Shown in pieces: positions 22,503 to 31,781 of a stretch of DNA of 64,000 nt. Position 1 is the stretch's first letter, and each line of letters begins with the position of its first letter. This DNA is from Phycisphaerae bacterium (GTDB taxonomy: Bacteria > Planctomycetota > Phycisphaerae > Sedimentisphaerales > Anaerobacaceae), in contig JAUXAB010000001.1 of the NCBI GenBank assembly GCA_030615025.1, positions 62,001 through 126,000 on the forward strand. Reading direction: 5' to 3'. The notes beneath the pieces were generated by a model. That model ran no database searches. It had not been told where the DNA came from and worked only from the letters and a program-made list of their open reading frames with translations. Made by a program: the position numbers and the translations under genes.

Positions 22503-23819
22503 ATGGCAACGAGCCAGAAAGAACCGTTCGAGTTGTATGTGCGTGAGGTCGAGACCCTTGTTCAACGGCTAATTAACGACCCGAATTCGCACAGCAAGCG
22601 GTCTTCCATCAAAGCAATTCTCGATGGTCAGCCGGCTGCACGACTTCGCGATGCAATCCCGTTGGCGGCCAGACGCGATGGAGGTACCTTTTTCACCGGA
22701 AGCAGATTAGCCCGGCGACTTGTCAATCAGGGCCTTGGAGAGATTTCTTCAGATACACTGATCGCCGACATCGGATGTGGTGCAGGTGACCTTCTTCTCG
22801 CATCAGCTCGAAAGTTGCCTTTGGCTGCCGATCTCCCTGAGACATTACGTCTCTGGAGTTCGAGACTCATGGGTTTCGACATCCGCCCCGAGTTTGTCCG
22901 CGCGGCCAAGGCCAGGTTAACACTACTGGCCATTGACCGGGGCCATCGGTTCTGGAAGAAGAATGTCACCGCCGCATCCGACTGCTTCAATATGGTGCGC
23001 CAGCATGATTTCCTCTCCTGTCCGGATGCGATCGCAGACGCTTCTCACATAGTAATCAATCCCCCGTATACTCAAATGATGGCACCCGCCAACTGCGCTT
23101 GGGCAAATAGTGGGGTTTCCGCGGCAGCAGTTTTTACAGATGCTTGCGTCTCTCATGCCTCTCCCGGCACACAAGTTGCCGCAATCCTTCCCGATGTCCT
23201 TCGCTCAGGATCCAACTACGAAAAGTGGCGAAACCACATCGAATCCCAATCACAGGACCTGCGAATAACAACATTCGGCCAATTCGACAAGTGGACGGAC
23301 ATCCACGTATTTCTGCTCACATTGTCTAAGTCTAAGACTCCGAATAGCCACAAGACTCACTGGTGGAAATCGATCAAACACCCCAAAGATGGCAAAGTGT
23401 GCGACTATTTCGACGTTCACGTAGGTGCGGTTGTGCCTCATCGGCACGCTCACAAAGGACCGTCTACGGCCTATCTCCGTGCCAAGCCCCTTCCTCGCTG
23501 GACAATGGTCAAACGAATTACCGAACGCCGCAGGTTCGATGGCACTCTGTTTCAGCCACCTTTCGTCGCCGTCCGCAGAACCTCTCGGCCAGGAGACAAG
23601 CGTGCAGTCGCCACAATCATACTTGGAAAACGCCAAGTGGCTGTCGAGAATCATCTTATAGTGCTCTTGTCAAAAAATAATAAGCTTTCGGAATGTAAAA
23701 ACTTGCTCGGAGTCCTCAAATCCCGTAAAACAGACCAGTGGCTCAATAATAGAATAAGGTGCAGACACTTGACCGTCCGCTCATTGAACGAATTACCTTG
23801 GTGGAGTTTCAACAAGTGA
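22503..23819 (+). CDS. N6-adenine DNA methyltransferase of candidate defence operon
   Basis: 438 residues from the ATG at 22503; the track start (22302) would overlap the zinc-ribbon gene and add 67 residues without family features. The Rossmann motif I is IADIGCGAGDLLLASA and the catalytic motif IV is VINPPYTQM, as in gamma/beta-class N6-adenine methyltransferases. An N-terminal helical part carries RRDGGTFFTGSRLARRLV. The C-terminal part (FQPPFVAVRRTSRPGDKRAVA, then AVENHLIVLL) resembles the target-recognition region of HsdM/type IIG-like enzymes. It opens a tightly coupled operon and overlaps the next gene by four bases (GTGA). A modification role that protects self DNA from the downstream HNH nuclease is inferred. 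Confidence 0.85.
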   Translation: MATSQKEPFELYVREVETLVQRLINDPNSHSKRSSIKAILDGQPAARLRDAIPLAARRDGGTFFTGSRLARRLVNQGLGEISSDTLIADIGCGAGDLLLASARKLPLAADLPETLRLWSSRLMGFDIRPEFVRAAKARLTLLAIDRGHRFWKKNVTAASDCFNMVRQHDFLSCPDAIADASHIVINPPYTQMMAPANCAWANSGVSAAAVFTDACVSHASPGTQVAAILPDVLRSGSNYEKWRNHIESQSQDLRITTFGQFDKWTDIHVFLLTLSKSKTPNSHKTHWWKSIKHPKDGKVCDYFDVHVGAVVPHRHAHKGPSTAYLRAKPLPRWTMVKRITERRRFDGTLFQPPFVAVRRTSRPGDKRAVATIILGKRQVAVENHLIVLLSKNNKLSECKNLLGVLKSRKTDQWLNNRIRCRHLTVRSLNELPWWSFNK

Positions 23820-26161
23820 AGCAACCAACCACCGAACATGAAGTATCCGTTCCCACAGAGTTGGATTCTGTTTCCTTTTCTGTGGCTGCTCGTGTAGCAA
23901 TGCAACTTGGACGCGAGAGCATTTCCAATTCGATAGTTGCAATAACAGAGTTGGTTAAGAATGCTTATGATGCGGACGCCGAGACCGTAAGAATACTTTT
24001 CTCTGGCCTGCAGAGTAATGATCCCTTTCTTGTCATCGAAGATGATGGCAATGGAATGACTGAAAAGCAGCTGCGCGAACATTGGATGGTCCTCGGAACT
24101 GCAAACAAGCAGAAGATGGGGAAATCGCCCGTCAAACATAGGGTCCTCACAGGCGAAAAAGGTCTGGGCAGATTGGGTTTGGATCGCCTCTGCAAGAAGA
24201 CTATCGCCAGATTCTTCTCAAAGAACAAGACTGATGGAGTTGAACTCGTCATTGACTGGCGAAAATATGAAAGAACAGCCCGGCGTCTTGAAGAAATTGA
24301 ACATAAATGCTACCGCATCTCAAAAACCATTAAAGACCCTATAAACGGTGTCCAAAGACACGTTGCTAAAGGAGCGCAACTGATTCTTCACGGGCTCAAA
24401 GATGCATGGACACCCGAATACTTGATGGACTTGCGAAAAGAACTCATGCTTTTGGTTTCGCCTTTCAAAAAGGTCAAGGATTTCCACATCGAAATTGACT
24501 CCGGCATGAATTGGGAGAGCGTTGACGGCCTCGTTACCTCACCAGAGATGCTCAGCGCGGCAGAGTGGAAGTTGTCCGCTAAGATTGACAGCCGCGATAA
24601 CATCACCTATGTAATGTCATCGCCAAGACATGATAGAACGTTTAAGTCTGGACGAACTCGCTGGAGTGACAAATTCCACAAGATGTGTGAAACACCACGC
24701 TGTGGCCCACTGAAATTTGAGCTCTATTTCTTCTCCAGGGACCCAGTAAATCTGCGAAATTTGGGCCTAAGAAGGCCTCAGTTGATCAAATTCCTGAAAT
24801 TCAACCAGGGCGTTCGAATCTATCGAGACCGTTTCCGGGTGAAGCCTTACGGCGAGCCAAATGGCGAAGGCGACTGGTTGAGGCTCAGCTACAGACGCCA
24901 ACAGAGCCCTGCTGGTGTTACACAAGGTGCAAAAGCAGGAGTTTGGCGGGTTGGCTACAACCAAGTCGTCGGCGCTGTTTTTCTCGAACGAGACAAGAAT
25001 ATTAACTTGATCGACCAGACGAATCGCGAAAGCATTGTTGAGGGGCCGGCTTTTTCCGATCTTAAGGCCTTTGCCGAAGACGCCGTTAGGTTCTTTGAGA
25101 TTAACCGCGAGAAATTCGAGCGTGACAAGAAGGAGACCACGGAATACGAAGAACTCCAAACGCAAGCGGAGGGATCGACTCAAGACTTGGATCATGCGAT
25201 AGATAGGCTTGAAGATGCAGCAGGCCGAATTAAGGGAATGATCGATCATGCCCAGAAGAGCAATGTTCCTCTAAAGGCGGAGGCAGTGAACTCCTTGCTC
25301 ACTGAGGCCGTGGCCAACGTCAAAAGTACGGCCGACAGCGTTAAGGAGACGCAAGAAAAGCTGGCAAAAGCGTCCAACGAAAGGGAAAAGGACTTTGAGA
25401 GACAAAAGGACACGCTTGCAAACCTAGCCTCGTTGGGCATTCTTACCGCCTCGTTCGGTCACGAAACTCTCGCAGCCTCAAATCTCGTGGCAACCAACGC
25501 GAAACAGCTTGATGAGTGCATCAAGGAGGGCCAGTTCATGCTCTTGCCTGATGTTAGTCAGAGGGTCAATGACAACCTCCTTTTCATTATGGAGGGTTCC
25601 CGGAAAATCGAAAGTTTTGCGAAGTTCGCTCTGAAGAATGTCAATCGTGACAAACGCCGACGAAAGCGTCTTTTCCTCAACAAAATAGCAAGAGATGTTT
25701 TTCGTTCATTTGAAAGCTCTCTCAAAGAAAGAAACATCAAGTCGGATCTCCACAGAGTTCCAGAGGAAGTTGCCCCGATTCAGGGTTTTCGTATCGACTG
25801 GGAAAGCATCTTTGTGAATTTCATCACTAATTCGGTCTGGGCGTTAAGAGACACACAGGCCCAAGAAAGGAAAATCAGGGTCGTTATCAAAGAGTCTGGC
25901 AAAAATCTCGTCGTTCGGTTTGCAGACAGCGGATATGGTTTGGAAGAAGGAACGTCCGACAAGATCTTCCTTCCCACGTTTTCCACAAAGAGAAACGATA
26001 AAGGTGAGATTATTGGTACTGGCATGGGCTTGGCGATTGTAAAGAGCTTTGTGGAGGACTATGATGGGGGCTCCGTTAACGTCAGTTCCCCTTGCGATTT
26101 GGGCGGAGCAGAGTTCGAAATTGCCATACCCATCCCTAACCTTTCACGGCGCAATAGATAA
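23816..26161 (+). CDS. Hsp90/MORC-like ATPase fused to a histidine kinase
   Basis: About 781 residues from the GTG at 23816 (GGTGGAG upstream, GTGA overlap); the track start at 23759 lies further into the previous gene. The N-terminal GHKL ATPase shows ITELVKNAYDADA (N box), VIEDDGNGM (G1) and GEKGLGRLGLDRL (G2-like lid), as in Hsp90/MORC/MutL proteins. A middle region is followed by a coiled coil at about 430-540. A second, classical kinase module has a HisKA-like SFGHE with His549, N box FVNFITNSVWAL, G1 FADSGYGL and G2 GTGMGLAIVKSF. Two GHKL modules in one chain next to a receiver gene suggest that target sensing by the first is passed to the receiver as phosphate by the second. This is inference. 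Confidence 0.85.
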   Translation: MKQPTTEHEVSVPTELDSVSFSVAARVAMQLGRESISNSIVAITELVKNAYDADAETVRILFSGLQSNDPFLVIEDDGNGMTEKQLREHWMVLGTANKQKMGKSPVKHRVLTGEKGLGRLGLDRLCKKTIARFFSKNKTDGVELVIDWRKYERTARRLEEIEHKCYRISKTIKDPINGVQRHVAKGAQLILHGLKDAWTPEYLMDLRKELMLLVSPFKKVKDFHIEIDSGMNWESVDGLVTSPEMLSAAEWKLSAKIDSRDNITYVMSSPRHDRTFKSGRTRWSDKFHKMCETPRCGPLKFELYFFSRDPVNLRNLGLRRPQLIKFLKFNQGVRIYRDRFRVKPYGEPNGEGDWLRLSYRRQQSPAGVTQGAKAGVWRVGYNQVVGAVFLERDKNINLIDQTNRESIVEGPAFSDLKAFAEDAVRFFEINREKFERDKKETTEYEELQTQAEGSTQDLDHAIDRLEDAAGRIKGMIDHAQKSNVPLKAEAVNSLLTEAVANVKSTADSVKETQEKLAKASNEREKDFERQKDTLANLASLGILTASFGHETLAASNLVATNAKQLDECIKEGQFMLLPDVSQRVNDNLLFIMEGSRKIESFAKFALKNVNRDKRRRKRLFLNKIARDVFRSFESSLKERNIKSDLHRVPEEVAPIQGFRIDWESIFVNFITNSVWALRDTQAQERKIRVVIKESGKNLVVRFADSGYGLEEGTSDKIFLPTFSTKRNDKGEIIGTGMGLAIVKSFVEDYDGGSVNVSSPCDLGGAEFEIAIPIPNLSRRNR

Positions 26162-26175
26162 GGTAAGCACTTGAC

Positions 26176-26817
26176 ATGGACAAACGGATCCTCTGGTTTA
26201 TTGATGACGACGAGAGCGAATTGAAAACATATCGTCGCGAACTCCAAAGTCTCATGCCCGATGATGTCCATATCAAGGCAATCCTGCCACTTCCTAACAT
26301 GACTGATTGCTCCAGCAAAATCCTTTCCGAAAAAAACACTGCATCCATAATCATCGACGAGAAGCTCAAGAAAAAGGGGCATGCTGCATACTGGGGTATA
26401 GACCTTGCAAAGTTTCTGCGCAGCATTGATTCCAAGGTTCCTATTTACATTCTAACAAATTATGTTGATGACGAAGAATTTGAGGGTAATAAGTGGAGTG
26501 TTGAGTACATAATCGACAAAAAGGATCTCCTAGATACGAAAAAAGCTTGTGTCATCCAAGCTCGCCTTATTAGACACATGAACGTCTATAAGGACATCCT
26601 CGGAGAACGGGAGCAACGGTTCAGCGAGCTCCTCAGAAAAAGCCTCAATGACACTCTCACTTCGGATGAAATGAATGAACTCGACGAACTCGACTTCAAA
26701 CGCCAATCACCCATTCTGGCAAGCGAGCTTGAACAACTCAAGGAATTGGAGGATTTAGTGGAAAAACACAAAGATGTGATGGATCAATTTAATCAGACAT
26801 CGCCAAAGGATGAGTAA
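26176..26817 (+). CDS. Stand-alone receiver protein with helical tail
   Basis: 213 residues. A complete receiver domain occupies about 1-125: the acidic cluster FIDDDESE (Asp10-12), the phosphoacceptor Asp61 in SIIIDEKL, the Thr in YILTNYV, and the Lys in YIIDKKD. All residues needed for phosphotransfer are present. No DNA-binding domain follows; the tail is charged and helical (LSDEMNELDELDF-type, then LEQLKELEDLVEKHKD). It starts 14 bases after the kinase gene and overlaps the HNH gene by 8 bases, so the most natural partner of its output is the nuclease or methyltransferase. Detocs is a known defence system that uses two-component parts, but its effectors differ. Confidence 0.8.
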   Translation: MDKRILWFIDDDESELKTYRRELQSLMPDDVHIKAILPLPNMTDCSSKILSEKNTASIIIDEKLKKKGHAAYWGIDLAKFLRSIDSKVPIYILTNYVDDEEFEGNKWSVEYIIDKKDLLDTKKACVIQARLIRHMNVYKDILGEREQRFSELLRKSLNDTLTSDEMNELDELDFKRQSPILASELEQLKELEDLVEKHKDVMDQFNQTSPKDE

Positions 26818-27481
26818 GATGGCCCATGACCCCTTGTCCTTCCCGCCGATTGCTCGCAGACAGAACTACCTTACAACGCAAAGGGGTACATACTACGCCG
26901 ACTACCAGACGTACAGGCAGGAAATTAGGGAAGACTGTTTAGGCCGCTGTGTGTATTGCGACAGCCATGAAAATGAAACCGGTGGGCAAGAGTCGATGCA
27001 ACTCGATCATTTCCGGCCGAAGAAATACCCTGAGTTCGACCACCTCAAAAACGATCCCAACAATCTTGTCTGGGCTTGCTGTGGGTGCAACCGTCTGAAG
27101 TCTTCACATTGGCCAGCCCTCGGCACGCCCGATACTGTCAGCGGGGTTGAAGGATTCATAGACCCGTTTCAAGACAACCGCCGCGCATATTTCGACATAC
27201 TACCCAACGGCGAGCTACAATCTCTCAAACCTCCCGCTGGATACAAAATCAGGCTTCTTGCTCTCAATCGCCCGTTCAAGAGACGAATCCGCGAATTTCG
27301 CCAAATCCAGCAATCATGGCTAAAGCAGCTTGCCTCCGAGGCCCAGAAGATAGAGAACCTCGTAGAACACGATAAGACCCTGTCCTCCGACACCGAGCGT
27401 TCTCTTGAAGATATCGCCCTCCGGTTAAGAAGAATGCACGACAAATTAGCCGCCACTTTCCTCGACTTCAGTTTGCATTAA
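26810..27481 (+). CDS. HNH endonuclease, effector of candidate defence operon
   Basis: 223 residues. The zinc-bound HNH core is clear: GRCVYCDSH with CxxC, MQLDHFRPKKYPEFDHL (HNH beta-beta-alpha start, catalytic His), then NLVWACCGCNRLKSSHWP with the second CxxC. This subtype (LDHFRPK...NL.WAC..CN..K) is the one found in Septu PtuB and retron-associated HNH proteins. The C-terminal 100 residues are helical. The start is ATG 26810 (8-base overlap with the receiver gene) or ATG 26819. It is the last gene of the operon. Confidence 0.87.
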   Translation: MSKMAHDPLSFPPIARRQNYLTTQRGTYYADYQTYRQEIREDCLGRCVYCDSHENETGGQESMQLDHFRPKKYPEFDHLKNDPNNLVWACCGCNRLKSSHWPALGTPDTVSGVEGFIDPFQDNRRAYFDILPNGELQSLKPPAGYKIRLLALNRPFKRRIREFRQIQQSWLKQLASEAQKIENLVEHDKTLSSDTERSLEDIALRLRRMHDKLAATFLDFSLH

Positions 27482-28391
27482 ACTATCCCCGCCCTCTGCC
27501 TTCCGCCGCCTGCCCGAATCCTAATCCCTGCATGTCGTAGGCAGGGATCCAGCAGGGATCCAGTTATTTATGACCCAAAAAAAGCACTTTTTTGGTCATT
27601 TTTTGTTGTCTTTTGTGCATTTTGTGCTTTTTCGTGGCTATCTTCTTCGTGATTCTTCGTGCCTTCGTGGTGAATATTTTTATTAAAAAAGTTCGATTTT
27701 TATTGAACATTCCGGGTGAGTTTGGTATAATACAAACAGCCATAGAAATGGCAGGTATTTCGCGGAGAACCGCAAGTCGTAAGCCACAGCGTGGCAAGGA
27801 CATAGAGCCAGCAGGCCAAGTCAAATATCAATAATCAGTAAGAAAGGGTTCTATTCATGCACAAGCTTTTTGAGATTCCCTCTATTACTCTGTTTCTTTG
27901 TGAATTTTGTGCATTTTTGTGGCTAAAAAATCCGCGAAATCTGCGTAATCCGCGATTAATAAACGATTTACGTGCCTATAAGGTGCTCTACAATTGTAGA
28001 GAAACATTTACAGATGTCATGAGTCCTCTACAAATCAACCTTTTTATGCAAAACAAAGCCAAATTCCGAAAAAGTCAAATGAACGTAAATAACGTATTAA
28101 CAATGGATTATGAAAAAAAAGACACTTGGTCAACGCGGGAAAAAACAAAGCCAAACAAACCCAATCAAAGCCAATTTCAAAAAGGCTAAAATGAACGTAA
28201 CGTCTTACATAACAAAGGGATATGAAAATAAACCGCCCATTCGGGCCCCGAAAAAACAAACCCAATTTCCGAAACGACAAAAACCAATGCAAACCTCTTT
28301 ACCAAAAGGGATTATGAAAAAAACCGCGCTTTCGGCCCCCGACAAAACAAACCCAAACAAACCCAATTCAAAGCCAAAACAAACTGTTTTC
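27482..28391. other. Intergenic repeat field
   Basis: No supported protein gene. It contains TTCGTG-rich non-coding sequence (27600-27670), one arm of the long inverted repeat (27773-28157) and an NKPN-type tandem array (28039-28395). The ORFs at 27592, 27857 and 28110 merely translate these repeats. Confidence 0.7.
27773..28157 (+). repeat. Long inverted repeat, arm 1 (inverted copy at 32185-32540)
   Basis: Starts AAGTCGTAAGCCACAGCG and continues through ATTCATGCACAAGC to AAAAAACAAAGCC. The same order of blocks appears on the minus strand at 32185-32540, with an estimated 80-90% identity judged by eye. Both arms can be read as a pseudo-ORF starting MHKLFEIPS, but with frame-disturbing differences. 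Confidence 0.85.
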
Positions 28392-28395
28392 TCAG
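28039..28395 (+). repeat. Imperfect ~105-bp tandem repeat (NKPN family)
   Basis: Three degenerate units, each with AAACAAACCCAATTTCCGAAA, then AAATGAACGTAA, a TTAACAAAGGATTATGAAAA-like segment and a CGGGCCCC-type segment. One or more units also end the inverted arm near 32.05-32.28 kb. The translation is rich in NKPN, KMNVN and KDYEN but drifts across frames. Confidence 0.75.
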
Positions 28396-28799
28396 CCGGC
28401 ACGGACCGTTTCTTCACGCCTTATCTGAAGAATATGCGCAATGACATCCGGCCTGCTGAGAATGCCAACTACTTTTCCTTCTTTGGATGTGACCGGGATT
28501 CTTCTGAAATAATTAATCATCATAAAATCACAAATAGTTTTCAAGCTGTCATTTTCGTTATAGTGAACTGCAGGTTGAGTCATAAAATACTGAACTGTTT
28601 TATCTTTTTCCTCTTCATCAGCGTAGAACAACCTCAGACAATCCTTCTCCGAAATAACACCCACCAAAGTCATATCATCATCAACGACAGGCATACCCGT
28701 AATTTCGTTTTTTAGCAGAAGCTCCATGGCCTCGTATATCGGGGCCTCTTTTGTTACGCTGATTACATCTTTTGTCATAACGTCTTTTGCTTTGAGCAT
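28392..28799 (-). CDS. CBS-domain pair protein
   Basis: 135 residues from the ATG at 28799 (GGGGAAAA upstream); the track start is 17 codons earlier in repeat-like sequence. It consists of two CBS motifs: AKDVMTKDVISVTKEAPIYEAMELL with GMPVVDDDMTLVGVISEKD, and YFMTQPAVHYNENDSLKTICDFM with RRIPVTSKEGKVVGILSRPDVIAHI. Stand-alone CBS pairs bind adenosine nucleotides and regulate partners. The larger protein at 29.7-31.8 kb has a related CBS pair. Its 3' end abuts the NKPN array. Confidence 0.9.
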   Translation of the reverse strand: MLKAKDVMTKDVISVTKEAPIYEAMELLLKNEITGMPVVDDDMTLVGVISEKDCLRLFYADEEEKDKTVQYFMTQPAVHYNENDSLKTICDFMMINYFRRIPVTSKEGKVVGILSRPDVIAHILQIRREETVRAG

Positions 28800-29672: not shown

Positions 29673-31781
29673 ATGGTGTCTACCCAAACAGAAATCGAAT
29701 CACAAGTTATAGAATTAGCAGGGAAATCATTTAAGACCTTTTGTGACGACATTTCCGGCATGTTCGGCACGGATATGGAGTGTAGCCCGCAGGCAGTGGG
29801 CACCGAAACTCTCAAAGGTCTTCAGGCACATTTTAAGGACTTGGTAGTTGTCTACTCTGTCAAGGCTGAACCCGCCAATCCGCAGGATGCCTTACGGCAA
29901 GGCGGGCTGAACGGCACTTTCCAATTAGTGTTCGACCAGAAGGGACTATTTATTCTGGCCGGTGTCGTTGCTATGCATCCCGAGCAAATGGTTCTGGAAG
30001 ACGCAAAATTCGGCTCACTCGAAAAGGCCGAGAGAGTGAGTGGCGTATTAAAAGAAGTAGGCACTGCACTCGCCGGGGCCTGGGATAGGGTCTTCCGCAA
30101 AGAATTAGATGGCCATGGCCGATTCGAACAGACTAATATTTTTATCGGAAATCCATGGGACAAATCTGAGGAAAAGATAGGCCTGGCCGGTGATGAAGAA
30201 TTGGTGTTTGTTCCATACGAGATGACAATCGGAACCTATCCGACTTTCAAGTGCGGCGTCATTCTCCCAAAAGCAATCTTTGCCGGCACATCTGAGTCGG
30301 GTGCTGAACAGGTCGCCTCTGCTGAGGAAAAAGCGCAAGTAGAAGTCGAGGAGAAAGCTCAAGAAAAAACTGAGGAAAAAGCCCAGGAAGAAACTGAAAG
30401 CAGAGCCCCGAACGTCAGTGAGGGGGTGGAAGCAACTGAACCCGAGGAAGGTGCTGCTACTGCTGAGAAAGCAAAGCCAGCAGATGAGGAAACCGTCGCT
30501 GCAGATAAAGCTGCCGTGGAGGGAGAGCCCGAAGTTGCCGCAGACCAGGAGCAGCCCACAGCTGCCAGAGAGGAGGAACCCGAAGTTGCCGCAGACCAGG
30601 AGCCCGAAGCAGCCGCAGAGCAGGTGCCCGAAGCTGCCGCGGAGGAGAAGCCAGAGGCTGCCGCGGAGGAGAAGCCAGAGGCTGCCGCGGAGCAAAAGCC
30701 CGAAGCTGCCGTAGAGCAAGAACCCAAAGCAGCCGCGGAGGGAGAGCCCGAAGCAGCCGCAGAGCAAAAGCCCGAAGCTGCCGCAGAGCAAGAGCCCAAA
30801 GCAGCCGCAGAGCAGGAGCCCGAAGCAGCCGCAGAGCAGGTGCCCGAAGCAGCCGCAGAGCAGGTGCCCGAAGCTGCCGCAGAGCAAGTGCCCGAAGCTA
30901 CCAAAGAGGAGGAGCCCGAAGCTACCGTAGAGCAAGAGCCCGAAGCAGCCGCAGAGCAGGAGCCCGAAGCTGCCGCGGAGGAGAAGCCAGAGGCTGCCGC
31001 GGAGCAAAAGCCCGAAGCTGCCAAAGAGGAGGAGCCCGGAGCAGCCGCAGAGCAGGTGCCCGAAGCTGCCGTAGAGCAAGAGCCCGAAGCTACCGTAGAG
31101 CAAGAGCCCAAAGCAGCCGCAGAGCAGGAGCCCGAAGTTGCCGCAGACCAGGAGCCCGAAGCAGCCGCAGAGCAAAAGCCCAATGATGTCGAAGAAGAAG
31201 CAACTACGATGGCTGAGACGGACAAGAGTGAAGAGCATCCGGTTTCCGAAACCATTCAAAAAATGGCCCAGTCCCCTGCTGCCCTTCCGGGTGAGCCCGC
31301 TCCATCCACAATGGCGGAAAAACCGGCGATTAGTAGTAAAGACGCATCTTCAACCGTATGCGCAAAAGACATTATGCAAAAAGATGTCATCTGGGGAAAT
31401 CCGGATGATAGCGTACAGCAGGCCCTTACAAAGATTCAGCAGCACGATGCCGGCTATATAATGATAGGCCAGGGACAGGTGCCTGAAGGTGTTGTATCAA
31501 AGTCTGATCTAACAGGAGCGCTTAGTCCCTACTTACGATCCACATTTGCTAAATGGCGTCGACCACTGGATGATGCTACGCTTCAAATCAGGATCAAATG
31601 GATAATGAGCAAACCCTCTTGCGCCATAGGGCCGGAGACGTCACTTACGGCAATAATGGAGAATATGTGCCAGGCCGGCATACGATGTTTACCCGTGGTG
31701 GACGAGCACGGCAGAGTGCAGGGCTTAGTAACGGCACTTGACATCTTTAAGGTCTTACTAAAACATTCCTATCGCAAGTAA
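29673..31781 (+). CDS. CheX/CheC-like domain, EPEAAAEQ repeat tract and CBS pair
   Basis: 702 residues. About 1-205 form a CheC/CheX-like fold (LNGTFQLVFDQKGLFILAGVV, AERVSGVLKEVGTALAGAW). The phosphatase signature SxxxExxN survives only as GVLKEVGT, so Asn is Thr and activity is doubtful. About 206-510 are low complexity: first EEKAQEKTEEKAQ, then more than 25 degenerate 8-residue units such as EPEAAAEQ. A CCCCGAACGTCAGTGAGGGG repeat is in frame near 30405 (SRAPNVSEG). The C-terminal 130 residues are a CBS pair (CAKDIMQKDVIWGNPDDS; CLPVVDEHGRVQGLVTALDIF). It may link a chemosensory-like domain to nucleotide sensing. It lies between the arms of a long inverted repeat. Confidence 0.72.
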   Translation: MVSTQTEIESQVIELAGKSFKTFCDDISGMFGTDMECSPQAVGTETLKGLQAHFKDLVVVYSVKAEPANPQDALRQGGLNGTFQLVFDQKGLFILAGVVAMHPEQMVLEDAKFGSLEKAERVSGVLKEVGTALAGAWDRVFRKELDGHGRFEQTNIFIGNPWDKSEEKIGLAGDEELVFVPYEMTIGTYPTFKCGVILPKAIFAGTSESGAEQVASAEEKAQVEVEEKAQEKTEEKAQEETESRAPNVSEGVEATEPEEGAATAEKAKPADEETVAADKAAVEGEPEVAADQEQPTAAREEEPEVAADQEPEAAAEQVPEAAAEEKPEAAAEEKPEAAAEQKPEAAVEQEPKAAAEGEPEAAAEQKPEAAAEQEPKAAAEQEPEAAAEQVPEAAAEQVPEAAAEQVPEATKEEEPEATVEQEPEAAAEQEPEAAAEEKPEAAAEQKPEAAKEEEPGAAAEQVPEAAVEQEPEATVEQEPKAAAEQEPEVAADQEPEAAAEQKPNDVEEEATTMAETDKSEEHPVSETIQKMAQSPAALPGEPAPSTMAEKPAISSKDASSTVCAKDIMQKDVIWGNPDDSVQQALTKIQQHDAGYIMIGQGQVPEGVVSKSDLTGALSPYLRSTFAKWRRPLDDATLQIRIKWIMSKPSCAIGPETSLTAIMENMCQAGIRCLPVVDEHGRVQGLVTALDIFKVLLKHSYRK
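30402..30427. repeat. CCCCGAACGTCAGTGAGGGG repeat, copy 1 (in frame)
   Basis: Shared with 47271-47304 (minus strand) and 59395-59420. It reads SRAPNVSEGVE here. With flanks the match to the 47 kb copy is longer than 30 bases. Confidence 0.9.
30526..31185. repeat. 24-bp coding minisatellite (EPEAAAEQ units)
   Basis: Tandem GAGCCCGAAGCAGCCGCAGA-type units with 24-base period and third-base variants. All three forward frames and the reverse strand stay largely open, which explains the large antisense ORFs at 30105-31259 and 30359-31255. Confidence 0.93.

What the first reader, a model, noticed from the sequence alone, without database searches (positions are those of the whole stretch)
23816..26161. 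One protein with two distinct GHKL modules separated by a coiled coil
The N-terminal ATPase is of the Hsp90/MORC/MutL type and the C-terminal module is a classical HisKA-HATPase. Both have their N, G1 and G2 boxes. Kinases usually have non-ATPase sensors; here an ATP-driven clamp appears to be the sensor. If MORC-like clamping on DNA is coupled to phospho-signalling, this is a new sensory mechanism.
Basis: partly seen in the sequence, partly recalled or inferred. Interest (0 to 1): 0.7.

Follow-up and report, generated by a model that had tools for sequence, protein, structure and literature searches.

The report
Kinase-wired restriction-modification defence cassette
A bacterial protein that joins a DNA-clamp-type ATPase to a signalling kinase is real, but this design was already described in 2021; here it is the control part of a mobile four-gene unit (DNA methylase, kinase, receiver, nuclease) that looks like a phage-defence system switched on by phosphorylation.

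Summary
Window 23816-26161 encodes one 781-aa protein with two complete GHKL modules. Residues 31-435 have the MORC/Hsp90 ATPase-plus-transducer fold (MORC3, Z 23); residues 541-775 have the histidine-kinase core fold (HK853, ZraS). Helices join them. It is no joining artefact: 74 relatives from many phyla carry both modules in one frame, with both sets of catalytic residues and phospho-acceptor H549 invariant.

The architecture is not new. Bellieny-Rabelo et al. 2021 (PMC8011034) described HATPase_c_3+HEF_HK+HATPase_c proteins beside restriction genes and already suggested the N-terminal ATPase as sensor. Our protein fails their HEF_HK domain and its neighbour fails Response_reg_2, so it is a sister branch.

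What I could not find described is the unit: N6-type methylase, GHKL-kinase, receiver with a helical hairpin and no DNA-binding domain, PtuB-like HNH nuclease (a ComEC-like metallohydrolase in a sister clade). In two prophage contigs the whole unit lies between integrase and CI-like repressor. Best reading: a restriction/phage-defence system in which a paraMORC clamp gates phosphotransfer that licenses a nuclease. Composition is shown; DNA sensing, phosphotransfer and nuclease control are inferred.

The parts
22503..23819 (+). N6-type DNA methyltransferase; ORF open from 22302, but relatives' starts point to the ATG at 22503
   Evidence: N6_Mtase at gathering score, PADLOC MTase_II and mad2 models; NPPY motif and motif I in the alignment of 9 relatives; start position
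23816..26161 (+). Double-GHKL protein: paraMORC-type ATPase joined to a histidine kinase; overlaps the methylase stop (GTGA)
23906..24460 (+). N-terminal GHKL ATPase domain (about residues 31-215): ELVKNAYDADA, DDGNGM, GEKGLGR
   Evidence: HATPase_c_3; MORC3 fold; invariant residues
24461..25039 (+). Transducer (S5-like) domain, about residues 216-408, with invariant R404
   Evidence: model and MORC3/Hsp90 alignment to residue 435-438; conservation
25046..25420 (+). Helical connector, about residues 411-535
   Evidence: helices 411-440, 443-482, 488-570 in the model
25421..25651 (+). DHp region (about 536-612); phospho-acceptor H549 codon at 25460-25462
   Evidence: H549 145/145, acidic next residue 143/145; alignment to HK853
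25652..26140 (+). C-terminal CA (HATPase_c) domain, about residues 613-775
   Evidence: N668, N672, G734, G736, G738 75/75
26176..26817 (+). Receiver-domain protein (213 aa): full receiver active site (D10, D11, D61, T94, K115; D61 codon 26356-26358) plus a C-terminal helical hairpin, no DNA-binding domain
   Evidence: NCBIfam LM5578_1851 receiver family 3.9e-11, below cut-off; Response_reg hits 25 of 49 aligned proteins; model pLDDT 94 and receiver folds in the PDB
26810..27481 (+). HNH nuclease related to PtuB / retron HNH proteins; overlaps the receiver gene by 8 bases
   Evidence: HNH 9.4e-7; PtuB models; family profile hits PtuB structures

Best explanation
The gene is the control protein of a four-gene restriction/phage-defence cassette. 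The methylase marks the host's DNA (inferred). The N-terminal paraMORC module is an ATP-gated dimer clamp that recognises a state of DNA, most likely unmarked or foreign DNA (inferred). ATP binding and clamp closure are passed through the long helices to the DHp helices (inferred from the fold), so the C-terminal kinase phosphorylates H549 and passes the phosphoryl group to D61 of the receiver protein (chemistry supported by near-complete conservation of both active sites; not assayed). The receiver has no DNA-binding domain; its C-terminal hairpin is taken to be an adaptor that unleashes or positions the HNH nuclease (inferred).
For: Both GHKL modules intact and invariant. H549 145/145; receiver acidic pair 143/145 and 137/145, phospho-Asp 143/145, T/S 134/145. 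Receiver at +1 in 66 of 80 loci by a model built on other loci; methylase signature within four genes in 60 of 80 and HNH in 41 of 80; second downstream gene HNH in 39 of 56 and metallohydrolase in 8. Kinase, receiver, nuclease and methylase distances correlate (Spearman 0.42-0.65, permuted maximum 0.14-0.20). Same order on plasmids of Deinococcus, Hymenobacter, Burkholderia and Klebsiella. Whole cassette between integrase and CI-like repressor in prophage contigs L156 and L157. HNH related to PtuB, a known anti-phage effector. The N-terminal module matches the BbrUII/HgiDII restriction enzyme family locally (7e-20).
Against: No assay of any step. No match to a named complete defence system. 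The kinase-receiver covariation test gave no interface signal. The match of receiver-tail type to nuclease type can be plain co-inheritance, since the effector changes only 3 times on the kinase tree. The usual HisKA phosphatase residue four after the His is not conserved, so how the signal is reset is unknown.
Confidence: 0.5

Rival explanations
1. The kinase and receiver regulate expression or timing of the restriction genes (an R-M control circuit), not nuclease activity directly, as Bellieny-Rabelo et al. suggested for the HEF_HK branch.
For: R-M systems often need timing control (general knowledge); PMC8011034 proposes signalling that controls R-M directly or indirectly.
Against: The receiver model has no DNA-binding domain, only a helical hairpin, and no regulator is conserved in the unit.
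Confidence: 0.15
2. It is an ATP-driven DNA-clamp restriction complex in which the kinase-like half and the receiver serve mainly as assembly modules and phosphotransfer is dispensable.
For: paraMORCs already act in R-M systems without kinases; the phosphatase position is not conserved.
Against: Phospho-acceptor His and Asp, the acidic pair and T/S are kept in almost all of 145 pairs, which structure alone would not need.
Confidence: 0.2
3. It is a DNA-repair system, with the GHKL module working like MutL and the nuclease like MutH or Vsr.
For: Vsr-like genes lie beside C5-methylase relatives (my reading of L042 and L045); MutL is among the N-terminal profile hits.
Against: This branch has a PtuB-like HNH or a ComEC-like hydrolase instead, patchy distribution (18 of 294 genomes of the phylum at E 1e-20) and prophage cargo sites.
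Confidence: 0.1

Closest known systems
HEF_HK / Response_reg_2 two-component-like pair (PF19191/PF19192; Bellieny-Rabelo et al. 2021, PMC8011034)
   Same: Same order HATPase_c_3, DHp, HATPase_c in one soluble protein; receiver-like gene next door; R-M genes around; the sensor idea already stated. Two of 38 relatives scanned do hit HEF_HK and two of 24 long receivers hit Response_reg_2.
   Different: The window protein does not hit PF19191 and its receiver does not hit PF19192 at E up to 1. Its unit has an N6-type methylase and a PtuB-like HNH; the paper stresses C5 methylases, HNH_2 and Vsr.
paraMORC / MORC ATPases (Iyer, Abhiman and Aravind 2008, PMC2292703)
   Same: N-terminal GHKL plus transducer with MORC3 fold; R-M neighbourhood.
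   Different: The paraMORC families described there carry nuclease, TIR or other C-terminal domains; a histidine kinase C-terminus is not in the section I read.
BbrUII/HgiDII family restriction enzymes (NF050001)
   Same: N-terminal GHKL module matches residues 21-228 (7.1e-20).
   Different: Score 71 against a cut-off of 550; the rest of the protein does not match.
HisKA-type histidine kinases such as HK853, ZraS, CpxA
   Same: DHp plus CA fold with H, N, G1 and G2 motifs.
   Different: Soluble, with an ATPase clamp module in place of a ligand sensor; HisKA Pfam model not reached; the HisKA phosphatase position is not conserved.
Detocs (defensive two-component system)
   Same: Works-like precedent: a two-component relay used for phage defence.
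   Different: Three genes with an ATP-degrading PNP effector in the best-described case; here a methylase and a PtuB-like nuclease.
Septu / retron Ec78 PtuB
   Same: HNH protein of the cassette is related to PtuB.
   Different: No PtuA ATPase or reverse transcriptase in the unit; below family cut-offs.

Membership tests
HEF_HK / Response_reg_2 system | HATPase_c_3 N-terminal and HATPase_c C-terminal in one protein | tested here: met
   Both above cut-off
HEF_HK / Response_reg_2 system | HEF_HK domain PF19191 | tested here: not met
   No hit at E up to 1; model present in the library, since it hits 2 of 38 relatives
HEF_HK / Response_reg_2 system | Adjacent Response_reg_2 gene PF19192 | tested here: not met
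   Receiver gene has no PF19192 hit; model present in the library
HEF_HK / Response_reg_2 system | R-M genes in the neighbourhood | tested here: met
   Methylase and HNH genes
paraMORC / MORC-type ATPase | GHKL ATPase with catalytic Glu, Mg-binding Asn, G1 and G2 followed by a transducer domain | tested here: met
   Invariant E45, N49, D76, G78, G80, G113-G118; MORC3 alignment 31-435, Z 23.0
[quoted passage not shown]
   The text read names it as absent from paraMORCs but the motif was not looked up
Histidine kinase | DHp His with following acidic residue, N box, G1, G2 and CA fold | tested here: met
   H549 145/145, E/D next 143/145; N668, N672, G734-G738 invariant; fold
Histidine kinase | Autophosphorylation and phosphotransfer | not testable with these tools
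   Needs protein chemistry
Response regulator (receiver domain) | Receiver fold with acidic pair, phospho-Asp, T/S and Lys | tested here: met
   pLDDT 94 model, PDB receiver matches; D10, D11, D61, T94, K115. Pfam Response_reg itself below cut-off for the window protein
Type II-like restriction-modification system | DNA methyltransferase with intact motifs plus a nuclease in one operon | tested here: met
   Methylase NPPY and HNH residues conserved; overlapping genes
Type II-like restriction-modification system | Cleavage of unmodified target, protection by the methylase | not testable with these tools
   Needs methylome and cleavage tests
Detocs | Homology to Detocs kinase, receiver and effector proteins | tested here: inconclusive
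   No Detocs model among PADLOC hits, but whether that library holds one was not checked

The most novel reading that the evidence does not exclude
A widespread, phage-borne class of restriction systems in which cleavage is licensed by a phosphorelay: a MORC-type DNA clamp acts directly as the sensor of a histidine kinase, and a receiver without DNA-binding domain turns on an exchangeable nuclease (HNH or ComEC-like).
Probability: 0.4. Interest if true: 0.82.

Novelty: new variant of a known kind. Interest (0 to 1): 0.52.

Why it matters
If the relay works as inferred, a two-component system would control a restriction nuclease at protein level. It would also give a direct readout (kinase activity) for what a bacterial MORC-type clamp senses, open since prokaryotic MORCs were described in 2008. 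The cassette is compact and occurs from the window's uncultured genome to Pseudomonas and Pantoea, so it can be tested in laboratory strains.

Tried and rejected
The first genome-contig scan with the single protein found no relatives; the alignment scan found at least 576. Covariation between kinase and receiver over 145 pairs (Neff about 103) gave no enrichment at the expected DHp/alpha-1 interface; background signal dominates, so this is inconclusive. Receiver-tail type goes with nuclease type without exception (11 MBL with the MBL-type tail, 21 HNH with the HNH-type tail, 27 HNH with neither, no crossing), but the effector changes only 3 times on the kinase tree, so this is not independent evidence of contact. 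Direct receiver-nuclease fusions: none recognised among the ten proteins checked one by one; the 1086-aa next gene of L132 has an AAA domain but no receiver hit. Frameshift artefact: rejected, although two relatives (Klebsiella plasmid L028, Pseudomonas L061) do have the kinase gene broken. No near-identical copy of the two prophage cassettes in E. coli genomes. No paper on the LM5578_1851 receiver family was found. Subscription journals and preprints are not in the library, so an unseen description of the cassette is possible. The 73-of-80 receiver count is partly circular (models built on the same loci), so the 66-of-80 count is used instead.

Full report
What is there. Window 23816-26161 (+) is one open reading frame of 781 codons with a GTG start. 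Pfam finds HATPase_c_3 at residues 40-163 and HATPase_c at 663-774, both with E near 1e-18. The AlphaFold2 model from a 75-sequence alignment has mean pLDDT 87.5: an N-terminal GHKL domain and transducer up to about residue 408, helices 411-440, 443-482 and 488-570, a second DHp helix 578-608, and a CA domain. The structural alignment gives MORC3 for 31-435 (Z 23.0, 298 residues, rmsd 3.2), with Hsp90, MORC4 and SMCHD1 close behind, and HK853, ZraS, CpxA and ThkA for the C-terminal part (Foldseek). Profile searches of PDB sequences agree: MORC3 is best for the N-terminal alignment (7.9e-8), histidine kinases for the whole alignment over DHp and CA.

Is it an artefact? No. The second genome-contig scan found at least 576 loci that encode relatives. 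Seventy-four, from many phyla and also archaea, were aligned with the window protein as single frames; the catalytic residues of both modules are invariant. Two relatives have a broken gene, which is decay and not the source of the architecture.

The operon. Upstream, overlapping by GTGA, is an N6-type methyltransferase; downstream are a 213-aa receiver-type protein and, overlapping it by 8 bases, an HNH nuclease. The receiver's model has pLDDT 94: a receiver fold whose last helix runs into a long helical hairpin, with no DNA-binding domain. The HNH protein is related to PtuB, the nuclease of Septu and retron Ec78.

Conservation of the unit. Of the 80 best loci, 66 have a receiver directly after the kinase by a model built on other loci; 41 have an HNH nuclease and 60 a methylase signature within four genes. 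Pfam on the second gene downstream: HNH in 39 of 56, metallo-beta-lactamase fold in 8; three of the latter fold checked against NCBIfam resemble ComEC, below its cut-off. I see three branches: methylase-kinase-receiver-HNH (the window's), methylase-kinase-receiver-metallohydrolase, and relatives with a longer receiver protein, often with C5 methylase or Vsr-like genes. Annotated plasmid copies in Deinococcus, Klebsiella, Hymenobacter and Burkholderia show the first two orders; in Salipiger and Bacteroides the methylase follows the HNH gene. Distances between the four proteins correlate, as expected for a unit inherited together.

Mobility. A scan of viral contigs found 66 loci with relatives. 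In L156 and L157 the whole four-gene unit lies between an integrase and a CI-like repressor; in L158 it follows a P-like helicase loader. Cargo genes at such prophage sites are often defence genes (general knowledge). In the window's phylum the N-terminal module occurs at E 1e-20 or better in 18 of 294 sampled genomes, the patchy pattern of defence genes.

How it may work. Shown: two intact GHKL modules, a complete histidine kinase core, a complete receiver site in the next gene, an HNH nuclease and a methylase with conserved motifs, kept as a unit and carried by prophages. In 145 kinase-receiver pairs the His is 145/145 and the receiver Asp 143/145, which makes a working phosphorelay likely. 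Inferred: the N-terminal module senses DNA as MORC-type clamps do, the helices transmit closure to the DHp, and the receiver's tail controls the nuclease. The tail type always goes with the nuclease type, but shared ancestry explains this as well. The HisKA phosphatase position is not conserved, so the reset step is unknown.

Comparison with the known. Bellieny-Rabelo et al. 2021 described HATPase_c_3+HEF_HK+HATPase_c proteins (174 of 222 sequences) beside receiver-like genes in R-M regions and suggested that HATPase_c_3 is a sensor. The window's protein and receiver do not match their two Pfam domains, so it is a sister branch, not a member. Iyer et al. 2008 placed paraMORC ATPases in R-M systems. 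Detocs is a works-like precedent for a defensive two-component relay. I found no description of the methylase-kinase-receiver-HNH/metallohydrolase unit or its prophage sites in the open library; subscription papers could hold one.

Verdict. Observation confirmed; interpretation partly supported and not new in outline; the surrounding cassette is the more interesting result.

Noticed in passing
L156:1270-6143, L157:2694-7510: Complete four-gene cassettes as cargo between integrase and CI-like repressor of prophage contigs.
   Followed up: yes
L094, L104, L114, L115, L117, L119, L123, L163, L166, L167: Sister cassettes in which the HNH gene is replaced by a gene of about 335 aa, a ComEC-like metallohydrolase where checked, with a different receiver tail.
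   Followed up: partly
relatives with long receivers, e.g. L067:7163-8365, L098:7124-8248: Receivers of 350-450 aa carry a conserved C-terminal domain (PPxxxxxxGD ... TPxCD) with no Pfam match; could be the output domain.
   Followed up: no
L028:6971-9241 (Klebsiella variicola plasmid) and L061 (Pseudomonas): Kinase gene broken into pieces in otherwise intact cassettes; the Klebsiella one lies near the anti-phage gene ppl.
   Followed up: no
own genome G000:C56:67963-68442: A second MORC/Hsp90-like N-terminal module in a 569-aa frame of the same genome.
   Followed up: no
L119, gene before the methylase (712 aa): A second, weaker double-GHKL-profile match next to a metallohydrolase-type cassette in a Phycisphaerae MAG, perhaps two systems side by side.
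   Followed up: no
window 29673-31781: Protein with a long EPEAAAEQ-type repeat between an N-terminal domain and what look like CBS domains; antisense frames over the repeat are artefacts.
   Followed up: no
window 27857-28715: Frames rich in QTNPNKAN-like peptides just downstream of the cassette, probably a dispersed intergenic repeat rather than genes.
   Followed up: no
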